Positions 6,568 through 36,396 of a DNA stretch of 55,302 nucleotides are shown in pieces; position 1 is the stretch's first letter, and each line of letters opens with the position of its first letter. Origin of the DNA: a virus. A model generated the notes under the pieces. It had not been told where the DNA came from, searched no databases, and saw only the letters and a program-made list of their open reading frames with translations. The DNA lies in the IMG/VR virus record IMGVR_UViG_3300021964_000086, positions 1 through 55,302 of that record; one strand, written 5' to 3'. Both the position numbers and the translations under genes were made by a program.

Positions 6568-7239
6568 TTAAGCTAATGTGCAACCTTGATTTGCAAGTAA
6601 GTACCATTGGCTGTTTGTGAACAGACAAATAGCAGCGTCACCTGCATCATTGAAAGTTAGTGTAGAACCTGAACCAAAGTTTGTTGGTGTCAATGTTCCG
6701 TCACCACCATCAGTTACCATTACTAGAAACTTGATCTGTCCTTCGACACCATCAGCTAGTGTTAATGCGTCTGCACCTGTGGTAGTAATCTCTGTGATTG
6801 CTGATACAACATCAACTGCACCTGCACCTGAAAGTGCCTGTGTTAAACCAAATACTGGTGTTGCGTTGATTTGTACTTGATCAGCAGAAGCGTCTACCAA
6901 TAAAGCTGTAGAGTAAGAATTAGTTTCTGCTCTAAGGTCTGTTTGACCACTTGCTTCGTTGATTACAACTTCTCTGTTTGCACCATCAACTCTAAATGCT
7001 TCTTCATCATCATTTGATACAATGAAGTCTGAGTCTGCCGCATCACTATTGAAAGTAATGTTTGAACTTGCACCTGGGTTGATTGTGACTGCTGTAGGTA
7101 TGTTCGCCATGAAACTGGCTACTGATATCTTTTTGTTAATTGGTGTTCCTGACGGATCATCAATAACATGTAGTAAGTCAGCACTTGCGATATTACCTGA
7201 TCCTAGATCAGTAAGTGCTGTAATTTTCTTATCTGCCAT
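6568..7239 (-). CDS. Structural or fibre-like virion protein
   Basis: 223 residues. The N-terminus MADKKITALTDLGSGNIA followed by DLLHVIDDPSGTPINKKI is a common module of marine phage structural or fibre proteins. The rest is Thr/Ser/Gly/Ala-rich and predicted beta-structured (NPGASSNITFNSDA, TLTFNDAGDAAICLF), with two Cys near the C-terminus. It is likely a decoration or fibre component exposed on the particle. Flanked by strong hairpins on both sides; an AATAAATA box lies about 100 bases upstream. Confidence 0.55.
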   Translation of the reverse strand: MADKKITALTDLGSGNIASADLLHVIDDPSGTPINKKISVASFMANIPTAVTINPGASSNITFNSDAADSDFIVSNDDEEAFRVDGANREVVINEASGQTDLRAETNSYSTALLVDASADQVQINATPVFGLTQALSGAGAVDVVSAITEITTTGADALTLADGVEGQIKFLVMVTDGGDGTLTPTNFGSGSTLTFNDAGDAAICLFTNSQWYLLANQGCTLA

Positions 7240-9254: not shown

Positions 9255-10505
9255 CTAAAATTTTATCTTGCCTCTTTTGGGCACGATCTTTAATTTGTAT
9301 CTCACTATGTCCACAACTTCTGGTGGCATCATATAATTCAACATGTTAGCAATAGAATCTTTTTCTTCTCTACTACCTCTCATCATCTTTTCTATTCTGT
9401 CAATCACCTTAGGATCAACTTCTTTAAATTTACTTTTTCTGTTCTCATCTAGAGGAAATATTTCTAGATAAGGTATTAATTCTTCTTTGATAGAAGAAAA
9501 CTTCATTCCATGATTCACAACCAAACTTGCTTTCGCAGCTGATGATAGAACTGGTATATCTGCTTTCACAAGTGCCTGTAATTGTGGCTTACCCATTCTC
9601 TGCATCATTTTACTTAACTGTGTAAATCTTGCAGGTTGTAATTCTGTATGATGAACACCTCTTAATGGTTCATATTCTTTTTTCAATCTTTTGATTTGTG
9701 CGGATGTAAATTCAGTTATTAACATATCATTTTTATCTAATGCTTCATTTTTCTCACCTGTCTTATATGAGTATGCTGTTTTTAGATAATCAGTCGCTTT
9801 CGTAATTTTACCTTGCACCCATTCTTCAACATCACCGTCATCACTTACCATTCTTTCAATGCCGTCTAAGAAATGTCTCATCTGATTTACTTGGTTCATT
9901 ATCATATCTACTTCAGCAGCACCACCTGTATCATCACTATCAACTGCCTCACTATAAGTAGGAAACATTTTTCTCATTTTATTAGTGTCAAGAAATTGTT
10001 TTACACCCTTTTTCTTCATTGCAACAGCAGTTTTAGCATTAGGAGCATACACATGATCTTTAGTATCTTTAGTGTTTTTGTTATCTACTTTTGCAGTATT
10101 ACCTCTCACTAAAAATCTATCATTATCATATGCTTGTCCTTCTTGTCTTACTGTGTCTATTTGTTTTTTTAGATCAGCTTTATCAAGTTTATCTTGTGCC
10201 TTTTGAACAGGATCTTCTTGTTCTTCTAGTTCTTTTTTTAAATCTTTAATATTTCTTGCTGTTGTTCCAAATTGTTGTTTTGCAAACTTTAATAAGTTAG
10301 AATCAGAACCAGAAAATTCAATCGCATCATCACCACCAAAAGAAACTTTGTTCTTAGGTAGTTTTTTCATTCTAATACCAAATTTTTTAGCCGCCTGTGT
10401 TAATTTACTTTTAGGCACATCATCATATGATATATCAAAAACTGATACTGTTGCCTCATTCATTTCTCTGAGGATTTCTGCCATTGTTTTATTGTACTTT
10501 TGCAT
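9255..10505 (-). CDS. Putative internal virion protein, capsid-targeting-like N-terminus
   Basis: 416 residues, mainly helical. It starts MQKYNKTMAEILREMNE|A, with a good gp21-type site (M-N-E|A) at residue 17. A module near residues 200-250 (MNQVNQMRHFLDGIERMVSD, DYLKTAYSYKTGEK) recurs in other phage structural proteins. The C-terminal ~150 residues are a globular helical domain (KMMQRMGKPQLQALVKADIP, NMLNYMMPPEVVDIVRYK). Unknown activity. Its own TATAAATA late box is at 10522-10529. Confidence 0.5.
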   Translation of the reverse strand: MQKYNKTMAEILREMNEATVSVFDISYDDVPKSKLTQAAKKFGIRMKKLPKNKVSFGGDDAIEFSGSDSNLLKFAKQQFGTTARNIKDLKKELEEQEDPVQKAQDKLDKADLKKQIDTVRQEGQAYDNDRFLVRGNTAKVDNKNTKDTKDHVYAPNAKTAVAMKKKGVKQFLDTNKMRKMFPTYSEAVDSDDTGGAAEVDMIMNQVNQMRHFLDGIERMVSDDGDVEEWVQGKITKATDYLKTAYSYKTGEKNEALDKNDMLITEFTSAQIKRLKKEYEPLRGVHHTELQPARFTQLSKMMQRMGKPQLQALVKADIPVLSSAAKASLVVNHGMKFSSIKEELIPYLEIFPLDENRKSKFKEVDPKVIDRIEKMMRGSREEKDSIANMLNYMMPPEVVDIVRYKLKIVPKRGKIKF

Positions 10506-20127: not shown

Positions 20128-20156
20128 ATTATATCAGGTCTCCTATAGTTTGTCAA
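20128..20156 (-). promoter_or_regulatory. Extended -10 early promoter upstream of uvsX
   Basis: TTGACA at 20151-20156, 17 bases, extended -10 TGA-TATAAT ending at 20128, with the shared CCTGATA core. It overlaps the end of the methyltransferase gene and drives the small gene, uvsX and gene 41. Confidence 0.85.
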
Positions 20157-21267
20157 GGACTTTTTCATATATAGAATCCGCTATTGCTTTCATCATTAAC
20201 GGTGGTACCATTCTACCTATTCGTTCTGCCCTCTGATTCCATTTACCAGTTAACTTAAAATCGTCTGGCAAAGACATTATTCTTTTCAATTCACCCAAAG
20301 TTAGTTTTCGTGGTTCGTTCCAATGAAACGCCCCAGCATTTGTTTGCCCATTGCCCATTGCTGTTAGTGTAGGTGCTGGTGCATGTTGTGATACTCGTTT
20401 TAAATTGAAGTGATGACCCTTTGGATGATAGTCACCACCAGTTAAAACTTTGTCTGGATCTTTAGGCATCTTACTACCTGTGTCTTTCCAGTATGCTGTA
20501 TTCACAAATTTTTCAGTTAGTTCTTTTACTTCTTCAGAATCATATTCTAATCCTGCTAATGCTTCTTTCAAAGGTATAATCTTATCACTTGGTTCTGGAA
20601 ATACATTTTGTATTGTCATGAAATTTAAACCAACCTTTTCTGTAATATCGTTTCTTATACCAATAAAGATAACTCTTGTTCTTGTTTGAGATACACCATA
20701 GTTCTTACTGTTCATTACTTGCGAACAGACATCATAACCTATCTTCTCAAACTCATTTAATATTTTATTGTAATATTCTTTTGCTTCACCAATCGTTAGA
20801 CCTGCAACATTTTCTGCAACAATGACTTTTGGTCTAATATCATTGGCTACTCGTAGAAACTCAAAGAATAAGTCTTCAATGTTTTCTACCATCATACCAT
20901 CAGAGTATGATTTAGTTTTACCCCAACCATCAGAATGTTTACCACCTGATGAATGAGATAGTTTGCCTGCAACACTAAATGCACTACATGGTGGCGAACC
21001 ATCTAATATATCTATATCAGTTGTTCCTGCAATATCTGTAAAATCTTTACCAGATAGTTTTTTTATATCACCTGGTAGTATTGGTGTGTCTGGATAATTT
21101 TCTCTATATGTATTCTGTGCTTCTTCAACAAATTCGTTAATACAAAGTATCTTACCACCTGCCAATCTATAACCAGTAGAAGAACCACCGCCACCAGCAA
21201 ATGTAGAGATAACATTAAATCTTTCTCTCTTGCTTGATTCTACAACATCTTTTAAATTATACATCAT
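20143..21267 (-). CDS. DNA cytosine-C5 methyltransferase paralogue 1, altered cofactor pocket
   Basis: 374 residues with the full C5-MTase motif series: motif I STFAGGGGSSTGY (21-33), motif IV GSPPCSAFS with catalytic Cys94, motif VI AENV (151-154), motif VIII QTRTR (194-198), then a target-recognition region (~215-300), motif IX and X. Two key positions are unusual: the Gln that normally follows the catalytic Cys is Ser95, and the motif X Asn (GNAV/GNSV) is Arg352 in IGRMVPP. These line the cofactor methyl/sulfonium end, and both changes recur in the paralogue at 34970-36088. I infer use of an enlarged anionic SAM analogue. It is downstream of pol and HNH by 4-base overlaps. Confidence 0.9.
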   Translation of the reverse strand: MMYNLKDVVESSKRERFNVISTFAGGGGSSTGYRLAGGKILCINEFVEEAQNTYRENYPDTPILPGDIKKLSGKDFTDIAGTTDIDILDGSPPCSAFSVAGKLSHSSGGKHSDGWGKTKSYSDGMMVENIEDLFFEFLRVANDIRPKVIVAENVAGLTIGEAKEYYNKILNEFEKIGYDVCSQVMNSKNYGVSQTRTRVIFIGIRNDITEKVGLNFMTIQNVFPEPSDKIIPLKEALAGLEYDSEEVKELTEKFVNTAYWKDTGSKMPKDPDKVLTGGDYHPKGHHFNLKRVSQHAPAPTLTAMGNGQTNAGAFHWNEPRKLTLGELKRIMSLPDDFKLTGKWNQRAERIGRMVPPLMMKAIADSIYEKVLDKL

Positions 21268-21656
21268 ACAAAAAAACCTTCTAAAGTAAGTTGTGTTTCT
21301 TTTTTTATTCCTTTTCGTTGTTCGTGTAATTCATGACCTTTATGCATTTCTTTATTTTCGTATGTTTCTATAACATGACAATTCTTACAAAGAACTTTAC
21401 ATTTTCGTATTTCGTCTTTCAATTCTTTCATTCTTTCTTTGTGTAATGTAGTTCCATATTTTGGTATTCTGCTTACTAACACACCCATACCACTACCAAC
21501 AGGTCCATTCTTATACATGTAGTAAGATTTTTGAGTAGGATCTATGTGTGCAAAATCTAGAGCAAGACCGTGTTTATTATAGCCACAAACAGAACAACCT
21601 TTTAAAGTTTTATAATGCCAAAGTTTTCTAGTAAGTCTTTTTCTATATTCCATCAT
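21264..21656 (-). CDS. HNH-family endonuclease
   Basis: 130 residues. Zinc ribbons CSVCGYNK (C21, C24) and CKVLCKNCH frame the HNH core DFAHIDPTQK. HNH proteins cut or nick DNA. It sits between polymerase and the methyltransferase with ATGA overlaps on both sides, so it is translationally coupled and not a recent sloppy insertion. It could be a free-standing mobile endonuclease or a nuclease that discriminates DNA by its modification; sequence alone does not decide. Confidence 0.82.
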   Translation of the reverse strand: MMEYRKRLTRKLWHYKTLKGCSVCGYNKHGLALDFAHIDPTQKSYYMYKNGPVGSGMGVLVSRIPKYGTTLHKERMKELKDEIRKCKVLCKNCHVIETYENKEMHKGHELHEQRKGIKKETQLTLEGFFV

Positions 21657-28292: not shown

Positions 28293-28856
28293 TTATATTT
28301 TCTCCGGTATGTAATCTACTGATAAATCATAACCACCGTATGGATTTTCATTCATAGTAACTTTTTTTACACTAGGTTGTTTTTCAAAATATTCTTTCAT
28401 TGCTTCCTCGCCTAGTGTTCCTTTTTTAATCATTGTGTTTTTATCAAAATACTTTTTAGTTTTGTAATGTTTATTTTCCCAATTAGTATTACCTAAATGT
28501 CTAAATCTTTTTTTCCACACATCAGATAAAGTACCCACTCTTTTTATCCATGGTAAATTTTGAGGTATGTTATACCATATACCATCTTTAGATTCTTTTA
28601 CATTATCAGGATTTGTATAATATTTTTTACCATCTTTAGTTAACCAGTCATATATTTTTTTTGCAGGTGCTCTTATTATCTCACCTTCTCTAATATGACC
28701 AATTGTAGGTTTAACTTTGTAATCACCTGTACCTATAAAGTAAACCCAATCTTTATTTAACAAATTATCAATCTGTGATTCTCTTTGAGGAAAACTTACT
28801 ATGTATTTTGAATACATAAGTGTTTGAGTTTTAACCTCTACTCTTATAGTCTTCAT
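28293..28856 (-). CDS. Unrecognised phage protein upstream of rpsU
   Basis: 187 residues if started at MKTIRVEVKTQTLMYSKYIV (28856). A longer frame opens at 28943 but would overlap the AAA gene and read through a perfect hairpin. It contains WVYFIGTGDYKVKPTIGHIR, a stretch repeating the KKIYDWLTKDGKKYYTN theme and a C-terminal GTLGEEAMKEYFEKQ. No known motif. The only Shine-Dalgarno-like bases (GGGGAG) lie inside the hairpin stem, four bases before the ATG, so translation may be structure-controlled. Confidence 0.55.
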   Translation of the reverse strand: MKTIRVEVKTQTLMYSKYIVSFPQRESQIDNLLNKDWVYFIGTGDYKVKPTIGHIREGEIIRAPAKKIYDWLTKDGKKYYTNPDNVKESKDGIWYNIPQNLPWIKRVGTLSDVWKKRFRHLGNTNWENKHYKTKKYFDKNTMIKKGTLGEEAMKEYFEKQPSVKKVTMNENPYGGYDLSVDYIPEKI

Positions 28857-28860
28857 AGAA

Positions 28861-28880
28861 GGTGGGGATTTCTCCCCACC
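28861..28880 (-). promoter_or_regulatory. Perfect hairpin with GAAA tetraloop in front of a start codon
   Basis: Minus-strand stem GGTGGGGA / TCCCCACC (8 pairs) closed by GAAA, ending four bases before the ATG at 28856 and ~30 bases after the CobS-like stop. It has no U-run. It could mask the ribosome binding site or stabilise the upstream mRNA end. Confidence 0.6.
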
Positions 28881-28908
28881 CACGAGGTCTACATTATGAA
28901 CGATAGAT

Positions 28909-30081
28909 TTAAGCAAGGTCGCCCTCACTTTCCTCACTATCATTGGAAGGTCCTTGATTTAATTCGCTAATATCGACACCACTGTCAATCTTAGTGTATA
29001 GATCAAGGAAACTGTTTTTTGTGTCTTCGTCAAAACGATTTACACAAACCTCAACCGCTTTAAGTTTGTTCTTAAAGATGGCAAAAGCATTAACGATATG
29101 AACCAATCGTCTAGTGGCGATGATCTCATCTATACCACCATCGAAGAAAGTCTTACGAATAACCTCTGCCCACTTAACTAGGTTAGTAGTGTATTGAGTA
29201 TCTTTAAGACCATAATGGCTCATTACATTGTCTAAGATTTTTGTTTCAATCTTAGCAGAAGGATATGCCTGTTCAAAAGTCACAGGAAATCTTTCTAGAA
29301 ATGCCTCGTTAAGAATGTTGGTACCAATGAATCTACCGTCATCAGAACCTTTACCCTTAGTATTGGCGGTTGCGAAAATTTGAAACCCGTCTTTAGGTTC
29401 AACAAACTGACCTATCTTTTTAAGAAAGATACCATTACCTTCTAAGATTGGTTGTAAACACATAATCTTATTTGAGGCAAGGTCAATTTCGTCTAACAAT
29501 AACACGGCACCTTTTTTCATTGCATTGATAACAGGACCGTCATGCCAGACAGTTTCACCGTCTTGTAATCTGAAACCACCAAGTAAATCGTCTTCGTCAG
29601 TTTCGATTGTAATATTAACCCTAATCATTTCTCTAGAGAGTTCGGCACATGCCTGTTGAACACCAAGAGTTTTACCATTACCAGATAGACCAGTAATGAA
29701 TGTAGGATAAAAGATACCAGACTTAACAATGTTTTTGATATCTTTGTAATTACCAAAAGGCACAAAGGTGTCTTCTTTGTTAGGCACCAAGTTCTCAGTG
29801 GCACTTTCAGTAGTTTGAATTTGTTTAGAGATTTTTTGTTTAACCTCTGGTAGTGAAATTTCTTGTTTCACATTCTTAGAAGGATTTACAATACCATTCA
29901 CAGGCAATTTGTAAAGACCTCTAGATAATCTAAACTGAGGATTTTTGACTAACCACGCAGGTGCGTTTGGAATACCTAACGCAAGAGTGACCTCTCTAAT
30001 CTGTTGTCTAGTTACCGTGTCGGTACCAAATTTATCATGTATGGCTTTTACATAATTAATTTGTTTTTCATTTAGTTTCAT
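28909..30081 (-). CDS. cobS: CobS/MoxR-like AAA+ ATPase
   Basis: 390 residues. The N-terminal ~100 form a small domain (KAIHDKFGTDTVTRQQIREV), then an AAA+ core: Walker A GLSGNGKT, Walker B AVLLLDEIDLA, sensor IFATANTKGKG and NEAFLERFPVTF. It is the type called CobS in marine T4-like phages; in cobaltochelatases CobS works with CobT in inserting cobalt into corrin rings. Here its partner at 30224-32491 lies directly upstream. The real substrate in phage infection is not established; a MoxR/VWA-type remodelling role fits equally. Confidence 0.85.
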   Translation of the reverse strand: MKLNEKQINYVKAIHDKFGTDTVTRQQIREVTLALGIPNAPAWLVKNPQFRLSRGLYKLPVNGIVNPSKNVKQEISLPEVKQKISKQIQTTESATENLVPNKEDTFVPFGNYKDIKNIVKSGIFYPTFITGLSGNGKTLGVQQACAELSREMIRVNITIETDEDDLLGGFRLQDGETVWHDGPVINAMKKGAVLLLDEIDLASNKIMCLQPILEGNGIFLKKIGQFVEPKDGFQIFATANTKGKGSDDGRFIGTNILNEAFLERFPVTFEQAYPSAKIETKILDNVMSHYGLKDTQYTTNLVKWAEVIRKTFFDGGIDEIIATRRLVHIVNAFAIFKNKLKAVEVCVNRFDEDTKNSFLDLYTKIDSGVDISELNQGPSNDSEESEGDLA

Positions 30082-32589: not shown

Positions 32590-33273
32590 CTATTTTATCG
32601 CAATAACCCCATAAAAATTGAAGTTTTGCCAGAAAACATGTAAATCCTTGAAACCTGCGTCTTCACACATTTTAAACATTTCTGTTTTTGTGTTTGGTTT
32701 CATCATATGTCGTAATTGGACCTCTTTGTCTAAAATCTCTGTATCTGTAAAATGTTGTCTTTTATAATCATAATACATAAAAGTCATCATATCTTGAATT
32801 TTAGGATTACAACTAAAACTTTTTTCTGAGAAGATAAACGCACCACCATCATTCAAACCTTGATAAATTTTCCAGATTGTTCCTGCTCGATCTTTAGGTG
32901 GCATAAATTGTAATGTAAATAAAGAAGTCACTAAACTAGCATTTTCTATATCACATTGTCTAATGTCTTCCATTTTATAATAAAGATTATTCCATTCTGA
33001 TGATACCAGATCCTCTGCGTGACCATCAGCAAAATCTGATTCTATCTCTATACCAACATAAGTGGCATATGGCACATGTTCATTATTTTGTTTGATCATT
33101 GCCTTAAGCATTTTACCAGAACTACAACCTAGATCAACAACATTGGTATGATCTTCAACAAAATACTTAGACATGCTTACGACATCATGCCAGAGATTAT
33201 TATAACCTCTTACTGATTTTTCTATGTGGTTATCAAAACCTTCGCCTGCTGTTGCAAATGTAAATTTCGTCAT
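32590..33273 (-). CDS. cmoA: CmoA-like SAM enzyme (carboxy-SAM synthase family)
   Basis: 227 residues from MTKFTFATAGEGFDNHIEKS. It follows E. coli CmoA along its length: EKSVRGYNNL, motif I VVDLGCSSGK, IENASLVTSLFTLQFMPP, KIYQGLNDGGAFIFSEK, YYDYKRQHF and a C-terminal WQNFNFYGVIAIK. CmoA converts SAM and prephenate to carboxy-SAM, used by CmoB for tRNA cmo5U. No CmoB is present here. The equivalent of CmoA Arg199 aligns with Glu184, but an Arg lies one helical turn on (188). The start at 33273 is preferred (AAGG site, ATGA overlap with the PP-loop gene). I infer it supplies carboxy-SAM to the phage DNA methyltransferases. Confidence 0.82.
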   Translation of the reverse strand: MTKFTFATAGEGFDNHIEKSVRGYNNLWHDVVSMSKYFVEDHTNVVDLGCSSGKMLKAMIKQNNEHVPYATYVGIEIESDFADGHAEDLVSSEWNNLYYKMEDIRQCDIENASLVTSLFTLQFMPPKDRAGTIWKIYQGLNDGGAFIFSEKSFSCNPKIQDMMTFMYYDYKRQHFTDTEILDKEVQLRHMMKPNTKTEMFKMCEDAGFKDLHVFWQNFNFYGVIAIK

Positions 33274-34070
33274 ACTGCCTTTCCCCAATACTGACATATT
33301 CCTGCTACGGACTTATATCTGTTATTTGGATTTATTCTACTATTATTTAGCAATGTTTCAAATCGCTTGTCTATTCCTGCACCTAATTGTAAATTAATAT
33401 GTTTCTTGAAATTAAACTTCTTAAATTCAATAAAGTCATTTACGACATGATGCTTCTGGAATGGTTCATTCAACTCATACCAATTCTTACTGTAAAAGAA
33501 ATCTCTTACTGCTTTCGATAGATATGGTGTAATAAATTTTTTATTGTGTTTATCTGCAACACCTTTGTGCCATAGATAACCAGCAGACTTATCTGGTAAA
33601 AAATAATCATTTCTAAATTCATCAAACTTTTCTTTTGTCTTGCCTTTTGTGTAATGTAGTATTGCTCTTTTTGATATACCATAATAACCATCAGCTGCCC
33701 AACCACTCAATACATCATTTTGTTTTATCTCTGGATACAAATACATAAATGGAAATACACACTCAAAATGTGTTTTCTTTTTACAGTTATAATCTTTTGC
33801 TAATCTAAAAAAGTCTTCTTCTAAATTATTCGTTGGTACCACTTTCAATGTAAATGGCCACTTAAATATTTGTGCCACCTCAGCAGCCTTATCACTATCA
33901 TAACTAGAATTTGTATCTAAACAAAAAGAATAGGCATGAACTTTCTTTCCTAACTCGTGTGCTGCAAAAGCAACACTTAAACTATCTACACCACCAGATA
34001 GTAATACAGCAACTTCATCTTCTTTTGATTGTGCTTCGATAACTCTTTTTAGTATTTGTCTAATCACCAT
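33270..34070 (-). CDS. Asparagine-synthetase-type PP-loop ligase A
   Basis: 266 residues. PP-loop SGGVDS at 25-30 (ATP pyrophosphatase), then VLSGWAADGYYG, matching the second Asn-synthetase signature SGxGADE..GY. There is no N-terminal glutaminase domain. The family activates a carboxylate as an acyl-adenylate and transfers an amine. A Cys/Lys-rich stretch (YNCKKKTHFECVF) lies between. It overlaps the CmoA-like gene by four bases and ligase B by one. I infer a role in amidating a DNA-borne or small-molecule carboxylate. Confidence 0.8.
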   Translation of the reverse strand: MVIRQILKRVIEAQSKEDEVAVLLSGGVDSLSVAFAAHELGKKVHAYSFCLDTNSSYDSDKAAEVAQIFKWPFTLKVVPTNNLEEDFFRLAKDYNCKKKTHFECVFPFMYLYPEIKQNDVLSGWAADGYYGISKRAILHYTKGKTKEKFDEFRNDYFLPDKSAGYLWHKGVADKHNKKFITPYLSKAVRDFFYSKNWYELNEPFQKHHVVNDFIEFKKFNFKKHINLQLGAGIDKRFETLLNNSRINPNNRYKSVAGICQYWGKAV

Positions 34071-34963
34071 TAAAACCCTGGAAGTGTTGCTCCACTATTA
34101 ACTAATTTTTTAACTGCGGCATTGCGTGAATTTGCACCAGTCATTAACATTAATTTTTCTTCCACAACTTCAAATATTCCTGTGCCGTATTCCATTACTG
34201 TTCTTTTTACTTTGTTTGGTTCATAACCCATGTATTTTATTACTTCTTTTGGAAAAGTTTTTTTATGTGGTTCTGCATAACTATAATGTAAATCATTAAC
34301 CCACCTTAATATATCTGGATTTTTAAAAGCCATAATTGGGTTTGCACCAAGTTCATTAGCAACTTCTAAAAACAAATGTCCTGAACCTTTTTTTGCACCT
34401 TTTGATTGTATTGCCTCTGCGTAATAATTTTGTTTAAGAATTGTTTTAGCAGTATCTTTATCTACATTATGTTCTTTCATTGCTTGAGGTGTTAATCTAT
34501 ACATAAAGGTTTGTAGAGAACCTAGCAGTGTATCTGCACCATCGCCTTGAATTAAATCAACACCTTTAACATCAATTTTTTCAAGACACAATTTAAATGT
34601 TAAATAATATACTACATTAAATAGTGTTGTGATACTTTGATGTCCTTTAATTAAATGTAAGTTATCCATTACTTCTTCTAATGTGGTCAAAACAAGTTTA
34701 TTATTAATACCTAATTTTTCTGCTGTGTCTTGTGACACTTTAACATCATGAGTATCCTTAACTACACCTACTGTAATTGAATCTTTTAAACCAAAATATT
34801 TTTTTGCTATACAACCCAACAACATTGAATCAACTCCACCTGATAACATTAAGACAGGAGGTTTGTTTTTAAATTTTCTATCTCGATTAATAATAAATTT
34901 CAAATCATTAATCAACTTTATGGCACCTTCTTCGTAAGTATCAAATTTAATTATTTCTCTCAT
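34070..34963 (-). CDS. Asparagine-synthetase-type PP-loop ligase B
   Basis: 297 residues. PP-loop SGGVDS at 41-46, second signature LIQGDGADTLLG (Asn-synthetase SGdGADE-like), no glutaminase domain. It is a distant paralogue of the neighbouring ligase A. The two may act in series or as a heteromer. An AGGAG site lies at the end of the methyltransferase gene seven bases upstream. The exact acceptor and amine donor cannot be read from sequence; amidation of carboxymethylcytosine is my inference from the operon. Confidence 0.8.
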   Translation of the reverse strand: MREIIKFDTYEEGAIKLINDLKFIINRDRKFKNKPPVLMLSGGVDSMLLGCIAKKYFGLKDSITVGVVKDTHDVKVSQDTAEKLGINNKLVLTTLEEVMDNLHLIKGHQSITTLFNVVYYLTFKLCLEKIDVKGVDLIQGDGADTLLGSLQTFMYRLTPQAMKEHNVDKDTAKTILKQNYYAEAIQSKGAKKGSGHLFLEVANELGANPIMAFKNPDILRWVNDLHYSYAEPHKKTFPKEVIKYMGYEPNKVKRTVMEYGTGIFEVVEEKLMLMTGANSRNAAVKKLVNSGATLPGF

Positions 34964-34969
34964 TTTGTT

Positions 34970-36088
34970 TTATAATCTCCTTAAAACATTCTCATATATG
35001 TTGTTAGATAATGCTTTCATCATTAGTGGTGCAACCATACGACCAACTCTTTCTGCTTGTTGATCAAAATCCCCTTGTAATTTAAAGTCATCTGGTAAAC
35101 CCATTACTCTCTTTAATTCTTTAATTGTTAATTTACGATTACTGTCATAATGAAACACACCAGACAGACCTTTCTTTTGCCCTGCCTGTGTAAGTGTTGG
35201 GCAAGGTAGATCAGGTGCTGGTCGTATCATATTAAACATAGATTGTTTAGGATTGATATCTATAAATTCAGGATCACTAGGTTTTCTATGTTTGTCTGGA
35301 CTGAAAGGTAATAACTCAATCCACTTCTTTTGAAAACTACCTTGCACAAAATCTAATAACATTTGTACTTCTTCAGGATCGTTTTCTAAATCTTCTATTG
35401 CTTCTCTTAATGTTGGTTGTTTTGATTGTGGTTCTGGATATATGATACTATCCATATTCATAAAGTTAATACCAACTTTCTCCATGATATCATTTCTAAC
35501 TGCAACGAAGAAACATCTCTTTCTTGCCTGTGGTGTTCCATAGTCTGCGGCGTTTAACACTTTACCAACTGCTTCATAACCAATACTATCAAATTCATTT
35601 ACAATACGATTAAAATATTCTTTTGCCTTACCCATGGTGATACCCGCAACATTCTCACCAATGATAACTTTTGCCTGAACATCTTTTGCAACTCTTGTAA
35701 ACTCAAAGAATAGGTCTTCAATGTTATCAACTTGTTTATCGTCTGAATACTTTTTAGTTTTATCCCAACCCTTTTCTCTTTTGCCTGCAACACTAAAAGC
35801 ACTACAAGGTGGCGAACCATCAAGTATATCTAACTCGCCTTGTTGTATTCCTGCGGCCTTGAGTAAATCATGACCAGTCAGTTCTTTAATATCGTTAGGT
35901 AATATTGGCGTATCAGGATAATTAGATTTATATGTATCAATTGCACTTTCAACAAATTCATTAACTGCAAGTATATTACCACCTGCAAGTTTATAACCTG
36001 TTGAAGACCCACCACCTCCTGCAAATGTTGATATTACAGTAAATAGTTTGCGATCTGCTGATTTATATACATCTTCTAAAAAATACAT
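34970..36088 (-). CDS. DNA cytosine-C5 methyltransferase paralogue 2, altered cofactor pocket
   Basis: 372 residues: motif I STFAGGGGSSTGY (20-32), motif IV GSPPCSAFS with catalytic Cys95, motif VI GENV (144-147), motif VIII QARKR (187-191), target-recognition region ~210-300, motif X VGRMVAP with Arg350 where nearly all C5-MTases have Asn. Ser96 replaces the usual Gln. In M.HhaI the equivalents are Gln82 and Asn304; in M.MpeI changing that Asn (N374K) allows carboxy-SAM use. First gene of the operon with two amidating ligases and the CmoA homologue. The target region differs from paralogue 1, suggesting another recognition site. The ATG is at the predicted +1 (leaderless). Confidence 0.92.
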   Translation of the reverse strand: MYFLEDVYKSADRKLFTVISTFAGGGGSSTGYKLAGGNILAVNEFVESAIDTYKSNYPDTPILPNDIKELTGHDLLKAAGIQQGELDILDGSPPCSAFSVAGKREKGWDKTKKYSDDKQVDNIEDLFFEFTRVAKDVQAKVIIGENVAGITMGKAKEYFNRIVNEFDSIGYEAVGKVLNAADYGTPQARKRCFFVAVRNDIMEKVGINFMNMDSIIYPEPQSKQPTLREAIEDLENDPEEVQMLLDFVQGSFQKKWIELLPFSPDKHRKPSDPEFIDINPKQSMFNMIRPAPDLPCPTLTQAGQKKGLSGVFHYDSNRKLTIKELKRVMGLPDDFKLQGDFDQQAERVGRMVAPLMMKALSNNIYENVLRRL

Positions 36089-36094
36089 AATGTG

Positions 36095-36123
36095 AGTATA
36101 TCAGGTTATTACAGATTTGTCAA
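36095..36123 (-). promoter_or_regulatory. Extended -10 promoter of the modification operon
   Basis: TTGACA at 36118-36123, 17 bases, ACC-TGA-TATACT with the hexamer at 36095-36100; six bases then the methyltransferase ATG. Confidence 0.87.
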
Positions 36124-36396
36124 GGACGAAAAAGTCTTTAGTTTTTCACGCTTTTTCTTCACCCTTGTCTCAATATCTTCATATTTTACTAACCCCTTTT
36201 CTTCAAGTAATTGCAACATACACATAACATCACCTGCTTCTTTTGTAAGATTTTGTAAGGCATCTGTGTCAAATTGAGGTTGAGTACCAAATCTTACGAT
36301 TTTCATACATTCTTGGGTTAGTTCACCACATTCTTCAGCCATAATGGCAAGAAGTTCTGTTCGTTCTTGTACTGTCATTTTGGGTCTAAGTTTCAT
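36109..36396 (-). CDS. MazG-like nucleotide pyrophosphohydrolase
   Basis: 95 residues. AEECGELTQE followed by EAGDVMCML gives the ExxE...ExxD metal-binding pattern of MazG/all-alpha NTP pyrophosphohydrolases. These hydrolyse (d)NTPs or related nucleotides; in marine phages MazG-like proteins are linked to control of host nucleotide signals or removal of unwanted dNTPs. It ends inside the promoter of the modification operon and overlaps gene 46 by four bases. Confidence 0.82.
   Translation of the reverse strand: MKLRPKMTVQERTELLAIMAEECGELTQECMKIVRFGTQPQFDTDALQNLTKEAGDVMCMLQLLEEKGLVKYEDIETRVKKKREKLKTFSSLTNL

What the first reader, a model, noticed from the sequence alone, without database searches (positions are those of the whole stretch)
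32590..36123. Candidate DNA hypermodification operon: C5-methyltransferase, two Asn-synthetase-type ligases and a CmoA homologue
Seen: four genes with 1-6 base spacing or overlaps behind one strong promoter: C5-MTase (34970-36088), PP-loop ligase B, PP-loop ligase A, CmoA-like enzyme. Known: CmoA makes carboxy-SAM; Asn-synthetase-type PP-loop enzymes adenylate a carboxylate and form an amide; C5-MTases with an altered motif X residue can transfer a carboxymethyl group. Inference: the phage makes carboxy-SAM, writes 5-carboxymethylcytosine at specific sites and then amidates it to a neutral or amine-conjugated base, shielding its DNA from host nucleases. The chemistry of the four genes fits in order and no other explanation unites them. 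The normal CmoA partner, CmoB, is absent.
Basis: partly seen in the sequence, partly recalled or inferred. Interest (0 to 1): 0.95.

Follow-up and report, generated by a model that had tools for sequence, protein, structure and literature searches.

The report
Phage cytosine-tagging operon with extra ligase
A marine virus of bacteria carries the recently described gene set that hangs an acid group, and then an amino acid, on cytosines of its own DNA; what is new is a second, distinct ligase in the middle of the operon and a second tagging enzyme that probably reads a different DNA site.

Summary
The central inference (carboxy-SAM, then 5-carboxymethylcytosine, then amide ligation) was published for Synechococcus phage S-B43 in December 2025 (CmoA-CmoX-CmoY; PMC12783734). 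Against S-B43 the window's CmoA is 54%, CmoX1 about 52-55% and ligase A (a CmoY) 48% identical. Both window MTases carry the Arg that defines CmoX. So the core is a new member of a known system.

Three things go beyond the paper's main text. (1) Ligase B is a separate family: no full-length match in 50,697 cultured-phage records, none found in 84,980 bacterial and archaeal genomes, but present in five metagenomic phage lineages. In all four with visible context it accompanies CmoY, CmoX and CmoA; the window's sister phages lack it. (2) The window has two CmoX enzymes; in all 19 loci with two CmoX genes the target-recognition regions differ in type. (3) In the closest cultured relative, Pelagibacter phage HTVC008M, both CmoX positions hold DruA-domain proteins instead.

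Most likely: two CmoX enzymes mark different sites, ligase A adds glycine, and ligase B adds a further or alternative amide. The ligase B step is inference. New variant of a known kind.

The parts
36095..36123 (-). candidate operon promoter TTGACA-N17-TATACT with extended -10 TG; -10 ends 6 nt before the CmoX1 ATG, so the transcript may be leaderless
   Evidence: (conserved in sister contigs)
34970..36088 (-). CmoX1: cytosine C5-carboxymethyltransferase, SPPC catalytic loop (Cys95), Arg350 at the motif X position, class-1 target-recognition domain
   Evidence: (best PDB match 8yf3 = SpCmoX, E 1.7e-114)
34070..34963 (-). LigB: second PP-loop, asparagine-synthetase-type amide ligase; separate family, not CmoY; SGGVDS PP-loop, GDGADT motif
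33270..34070 (-). LigA: CmoY orthologue, predicted 5cxmC-glycine (or alpha-amino acid) ligase
   Evidence: (48% to SpCmoY)
32590..33297 (-). CmoA: carboxy-SAM synthase, phage type (Glu192/Arg196 where E. coli has Arg199/Glu203)
20143..21267 (-). CmoX2: second C5-carboxymethyltransferase, Arg at motif X, class-2 target-recognition domain like GC-specific SpCmoX; lies between DNA polymerase and UvsX
36109..36396 (-). MazG-like nucleotide pyrophosphohydrolase just upstream; recurrent neighbour of the operon, link unproven

Best explanation
This is a CmoA-CmoX-CmoY cytosine hypermodification system with an added ligase. CmoA turns SAM and prephenate into carboxy-SAM. Two CmoX enzymes transfer the carboxymethyl group to C5 of cytosine at two different target sequences. 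CmoX2 probably reads a GC motif like SpCmoX; CmoX1 reads something else. LigA adenylates the new carboxylate and joins it to glycine, as SpCmoY does. LigB, an asparagine/beta-lactam-synthetase-type ligase, makes a further amide, most likely on the free carboxylate that glycine leaves behind, or otherwise an alternative amide on a subset of sites. The modified DNA evades host nucleases. Shown by others for the homologues: CmoA, CmoX and CmoY chemistry. Shown here: homology, key residues, operon structure, co-occurrence, fold. Inferred: all activities in this phage, the different target sites, and everything about what LigB attaches.
For: Homology to the biochemically proven S-B43 proteins: CmoA 54%, CmoX1 52%, LigA 48%; SpCmoX structure 8yf3 is the best PDB match of CmoX1. 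Arg at motif X in both window MTases and in 163 of 163 CmoX with a complete C-terminus; of the cultured-phage MTases tested, those beside cmoA have Arg, those without cmoA have Asn, Leu or Met, with one Arg exception in Mcat8. Operon with a conserved promoter. LigA and LigB model as the synthetase domain of beta-lactam synthetase, carbapenam synthetase and AsnB (pLDDT 92.3 and 85.9; Foldseek E 4.7e-10 and 6.9e-10). LigB occurs with LigA, CmoX and CmoA in 4 of 4 lineages with visible context, abutting LigA in three, and needs at least three separate gains or losses on the LigA tree. In 19 of 19 loci with two CmoX genes their target-recognition domains are of different types; CmoX1 and CmoX2 share 64% in the catalytic part but 35% in that domain.
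Against: No activity, mass spectrum or nanopore signal exists for this phage. The joint presence of LigB with LigA is weak statistically: the base rate of LigA among cmoA+cmoX loci is 83/124, so three independent events would all have it by chance about 30% of the time. LigB could act in parallel with LigA. CmoA lacks the literal Arg199 of E. coli CmoA, although active SpCmoA lacks it too. The 19 two-CmoX loci collapse to roughly six lineages.
Confidence: 0.8

Rival explanations
1. Parallel rather than sequential ligases: LigA and LigB compete for, or divide, the 5cxmC sites, each adding its own amine (glycine by LigA; ammonia or another amine by LigB), possibly one ligase per CmoX.
For: Two CmoX classes and two ligases in one genome. 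LigB has Asp141 where AsnB has Glu348, an acidic residue that (from memory) matters for the ammonia step in AsnB; LigA has Trp/Ile/Leu/Val there. The paper reports ligase clusters with other active-site residues.
Against: Sister phages keep both CmoX genes with LigA alone, so a second CmoX does not require LigB; LigB lineages L024, L114 and L167 show only one CmoX on the visible contig.
Confidence: 0.35
2. LigB is a non-catalytic or helper partner of LigA (hetero-oligomer).
For: LigB abuts LigA in three lineages.
Against: LigB keeps the full PP-loop SGGVDS and the GDGAD motif in all members, which is not expected of a dead subunit; most LigA work without it.
Confidence: 0.1
3. Ordinary 5-methylcytosine methyltransferases next to unrelated metabolic genes (tRNA cmo5U pathway, asparagine synthesis).
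For: CmoA and Asn synthetase homologues have host roles in tRNA modification and metabolism.
Against: Arg at motif X instead of Asn, no CmoB in the window, no glutaminase domain in either ligase, proven chemistry of close homologues, repeated co-occurrence.
Confidence: 0.04
4. The system makes only 5cxmC and 5gcxmC exactly as in S-B43, and LigB is a passenger gene unrelated to DNA modification.
For: LigB is absent from sister phages and is AT-rich (GC 0.295 against 0.333 for the window), so it is a recent cassette; no direct link to DNA.
Against: It is placed inside the operon between CmoX1 and LigA, and has joined this operon or its LigA in separate lineages.
Confidence: 0.1

Closest known systems
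CmoA-CmoX-CmoY 5-glycylcarboxymethylcytosine system of Synechococcus phage S-B43 (PMC12783734)
   Same: Homologous CmoA, CmoX and CmoY-type ligase in one compact cluster; same Arg at motif X; CmoX2 shares the SpCmoX-type recognition motif (DYHPKGHxFN).
   Different: Window order is CmoX1-LigB-LigA-CmoA, S-B43 order is CmoA-CmoY-CmoX; window has a second ligase family (LigB), and a second CmoX elsewhere with another recognition type.
Glutaminase-fused CmoX-associated ligases (cluster of A0A7T0Q3R0 in PMC12783734; L029, L055, L058 here)
   Same: Asparagine-synthetase-type ligase beside CmoA and CmoX.
   Different: Those have an N-terminal glutaminase domain and a GEGSDE motif; LigB and LigA are single synthetase domains.
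Engineered M.MpeI N374K carboxymethyltransferase
   Same: Motif X Asn replaced by a basic residue so that carboxy-SAM is accepted (as described in PMC12783734).
   Different: Engineered, CG-specific, not a phage enzyme.
Beta-lactam synthetase, carbapenam synthetase, asparagine synthetase B
   Same: Fold and PP-loop of the synthetase domain; acyl-adenylate then amide.
   Different: Phage ligases lack the N-terminal glutaminase-like domain and presumably act on DNA.

Membership tests
CmoA-CmoX-CmoY phage system (PMC12783734) | CmoX: C5-MTase with SPPC and Arg at the HhaI Asn304 position | tested here: met
   Both CmoX1 and CmoX2
CmoA-CmoX-CmoY phage system (PMC12783734) | Phage-encoded CmoA homologous to active SpCmoA | tested here: met
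   54% identity, full length
CmoA-CmoX-CmoY phage system (PMC12783734) | CmoY-type single-domain ligase in the cluster | tested here: met
   LigA, 48% over 94%
CmoA-CmoX-CmoY phage system (PMC12783734) | 5cxmC / 5gcxmC present in virion DNA | not testable with these tools
   needs LC-MS
CmoY proper (LigB as a member) | Residues invariant in the LigA/CmoY family (C96, K98, K99, E103 and others) | tested here: not met
   LigB has SITTLFN in place of CKKKTHFEC; about 16-21% identity to LigA proteins; no full-length match to cultured-phage records
E. coli-type CmoA | Arg199 salt bridge to the carboxylate of carboxy-SAM (PMC3663124) | tested here: not met
   Glu at that position, Arg four residues on, in 135 of 145 phage CmoA; active SpCmoA shares this, so function is not excluded
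Asparagine-synthetase-type amide ligases | PP-loop SGGxDS and synthetase-domain fold | tested here: met
   both ligases
Glutamine-hydrolysing asparagine synthetase | N-terminal glutaminase domain | tested here: not met
   266 and 297 aa proteins match only the synthetase domain
Ordinary 5mC methyltransferase | Asn in motif X | tested here: not met
   Arg
GC-specific CmoX (SpCmoX) | SpCmoX-like target recognition domain | tested here: inconclusive
   CmoX2 shares the motif but only 40% in the domain; CmoX1 30% and a different motif

The most novel reading that the evidence does not exclude
LigB extends the glycine tail: after LigA makes 5-glycylcarboxymethylcytosine, LigB activates the glycine carboxylate and couples a second amine, so the phage builds a short peptide-like or amide-capped chain on cytosine, on sites written by two CmoX enzymes of different specificity.
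Probability: 0.35. Interest if true: 0.75.

Novelty: new variant of a known kind. Interest (0 to 1): 0.5.

Why it matters
The carboxylate handle on cytosine was shown in 2025 to take glycine. A second, distinct ligase family travelling with the glycine ligase points to longer or different side chains on DNA, and names the gene to test. The pairing of CmoX enzymes with different recognition domains predicts that these phages cover more than one motif. The closest cultured relative of the window phage infects SAR11 (Pelagibacter), a glycine auxotroph (PMC12478193), so a glycine-consuming DNA modification would be metabolically notable if the host is the same. The mutually exclusive occupation of the same two genome positions by CmoX and by DruA-domain proteins suggests that phage DruA homologues may also be DNA-modification or anti-defence genes.

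Tried and rejected
Plain 5mC MTases: rejected on the motif X Arg and on controls. tRNA cmo5U pathway: CmoB not found in the window. LigB as asparagine synthetase for metabolism: no glutaminase domain, and always in modification clusters when context is visible. LigB from bacteria: a scan of 84,980 genomes found no relative, so no bacterial donor is known; that scan uses short peptide patterns and can miss distant relatives. The claim that LigB needs LigA: the association is consistent but not significant given the base rate of LigA. The CmoA R199 test looked like a failure until the active SpCmoA was seen to share the substitution. Literature searches for a known link of DruA to phage DNA modification gave nothing direct.
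Full report
OBSERVATION. All four genes are present at the stated coordinates on the minus strand. Transcription order is CmoX1 (34970-36088), LigB (34070-34963), LigA (33270-34070), CmoA (32590-33297). Gaps and overlaps are 6 bp, -1 bp and -28 bp. The promoter at 36123-36095 matches 11 of 12 consensus bases with an extended -10. The same promoter lies upstream of cmoX in contigs L010, L011, L088, L089 and L090. CmoB was not found in the window, which is a 55 kb linear IMG/VR record.

PRIOR ART. PMC12783734 (Nature Communications, December 2025) reports the same logic in Synechococcus phage S-B43: phage CmoA makes carboxy-SAM, CmoX carboxymethylates cytosine in GC motifs, and CmoY joins glycine to the carboxylate; 5gcxmC was found in virion DNA. 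The authors found 5,615 candidate CmoX, 4,257 CmoA and 2,251 ligases in phage sequences. Its main text holds none of the phrases searched for a second ligase or for CmoX paralogues; supplements could not be read.

HOMOLOGY AND RESIDUES. Window CmoA, CmoX1 and LigA match S-B43 CmoA, CmoX and CmoY at 54%, about 52-55% and 48%. The best PDB match of CmoX1 is 8yf3, the SpCmoX structure, at E 1.7e-114. Arg stands at the HhaI Asn304 position in both window MTases and in 163 of 163 CmoX with an intact C-terminus. As a control, cultured-phage MTases beside cmoA (PaBG, TurkishDelight, S-B43) have Arg; MTases in phages without cmoA have Asn (CL131), Leu (Melnitz) or Met (tooticki); Moraxella phage Mcat8 has Arg without its own cmoA. 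Phage CmoA differ from E. coli CmoA at the residue that binds the carboxylate: Arg199 (PMC3663124) is Glu, with Arg four residues further on, in 135 of 145. SpCmoA shares this and is active, so it marks the phage clade rather than loss of function.

LIGASE B. LigB had no full-length match among cultured phages (four weak partial Listeria-labelled hits at 27%) and no relative in the genome scan. In IMG/VR it appears in nine contigs forming five lineages: the window phage and its near-identical contig L005; L167/L168/L169 (73%); L024/L025/L026 (59%); L114 (54%); L006 (56%, cut upstream). In the four lineages with context, LigA, CmoX and CmoA are all there; LigB abuts LigA in three and lies 3.8 kb upstream of it in L114. 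Sister phages with CmoX1 at 90-93% and LigA at 89-91% lack LigB, and their cmoX runs straight into ligA; the window differs from them in the last codons of cmoX, so the junction lies there. On the LigA tree LigB presence needs at least three gains or losses. LigB lacks the LigA-invariant CKKKTHFEC stretch and has Asp141 where AsnB has Glu348. AlphaFold models of LigB and LigA (pLDDT 85.9 and 92.3) match the synthetase domains of beta-lactam synthetase, carbapenam synthetase and asparagine synthetase. So LigB is most likely an amide-forming ligase with an amine or acceptor other than that of LigA. Because glycine ligation leaves a carboxylate, a second ligation on it is the simplest sequential model; parallel use of 5cxmC is nearly as likely.

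TWO CMOX ENZYMES. CmoX2 (20143-21267) lies between DNA polymerase and UvsX; a sister genome (L010) has it too. CmoX1 and CmoX2 agree at 64% in the catalytic part but 35% in the target-recognition region. The regions fall into types: one like SpCmoX (GHxFNxKR), one with FNxIRP, and a third. In 19 of 19 loci with two CmoX genes, the two differ in type; this is about six lineages. The type boundaries mostly follow the tree. This predicts two target motifs in the window phage.

PHAGE AND POSITIONS. The nearest cultured relative is Pelagibacter phage HTVC008M (DNA polymerase 77%, UvsX 88%, clamp loader 88%). HTVC008M has the same gene order but lacks the operon and CmoX2. In both positions it has a DruA-domain protein (PF14236, E 5.5e-18 and 1.8e-10). 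DUF4338/DruA has been described as a GNAT-type domain (PMC10853773). None of 80 DruA loci from IMG/VR carries cmoX or cmoA, and no CmoX/CmoA locus fetched here carries DruA. This fits the view that these are DNA-modification positions, but it is an observation, not a test.

VERDICT. The core is an instance of a published system. LigB and the paired CmoX types make it a new variant, with a directly testable prediction of a new nucleoside.

Noticed in passing
L177:4117-5259 and L177:17536-18660 (HTVC008M), against window 32590-36088 and 20143-21267: DruA-domain (PF14236) proteins occupy both genome positions where the window phage has CmoX genes; 0 of 80 DruA loci carry cmoX or cmoA. A weak beta-glucosyltransferase match (E 1.4e-4) lies beside the first.
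   Followed up: partly
window 39731, 36105, 32514, 30119, 27120, 24141, 20138 (- strand): Recurrent promoter TTGAC(A/T)...CCTGATA(T/G)(A/C)(A/C)T upstream of genes; at 36105, 27120 and 24141 the -10 ends 6 nt before an ATG, which suggests leaderless mRNAs.
   Followed up: partly
window 36109-36396; L003:5358-5765; L167:5127-5534: MazG-like pyrophosphohydrolases sit within 1.5 kb of the operon in 29 of 75 loci with flanks, against 2 of 80 DruA loci with any; many loci are near-duplicates.
   Followed up: partly
L172:2935-4005 (Moraxella phage Mcat8): C5-MTase with Arg at motif X but no cmoA in the phage; the host may supply carboxy-SAM.
   Followed up: no
window 21264-21656: HNH endonuclease gene between DNA polymerase and CmoX2, absent from sister contig L170.
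   Followed up: no
CmoA family of phages (e.g. window 32590-33297): Charge swap against E. coli CmoA: Arg199 to Glu and Glu203 to Arg, one helical turn apart.
   Followed up: yes
window 28293-28943, 9255-10505, 6568-7239: Proteins of 216, 416 and 223 aa without any PHROG match at E 1e-5.
   Followed up: no
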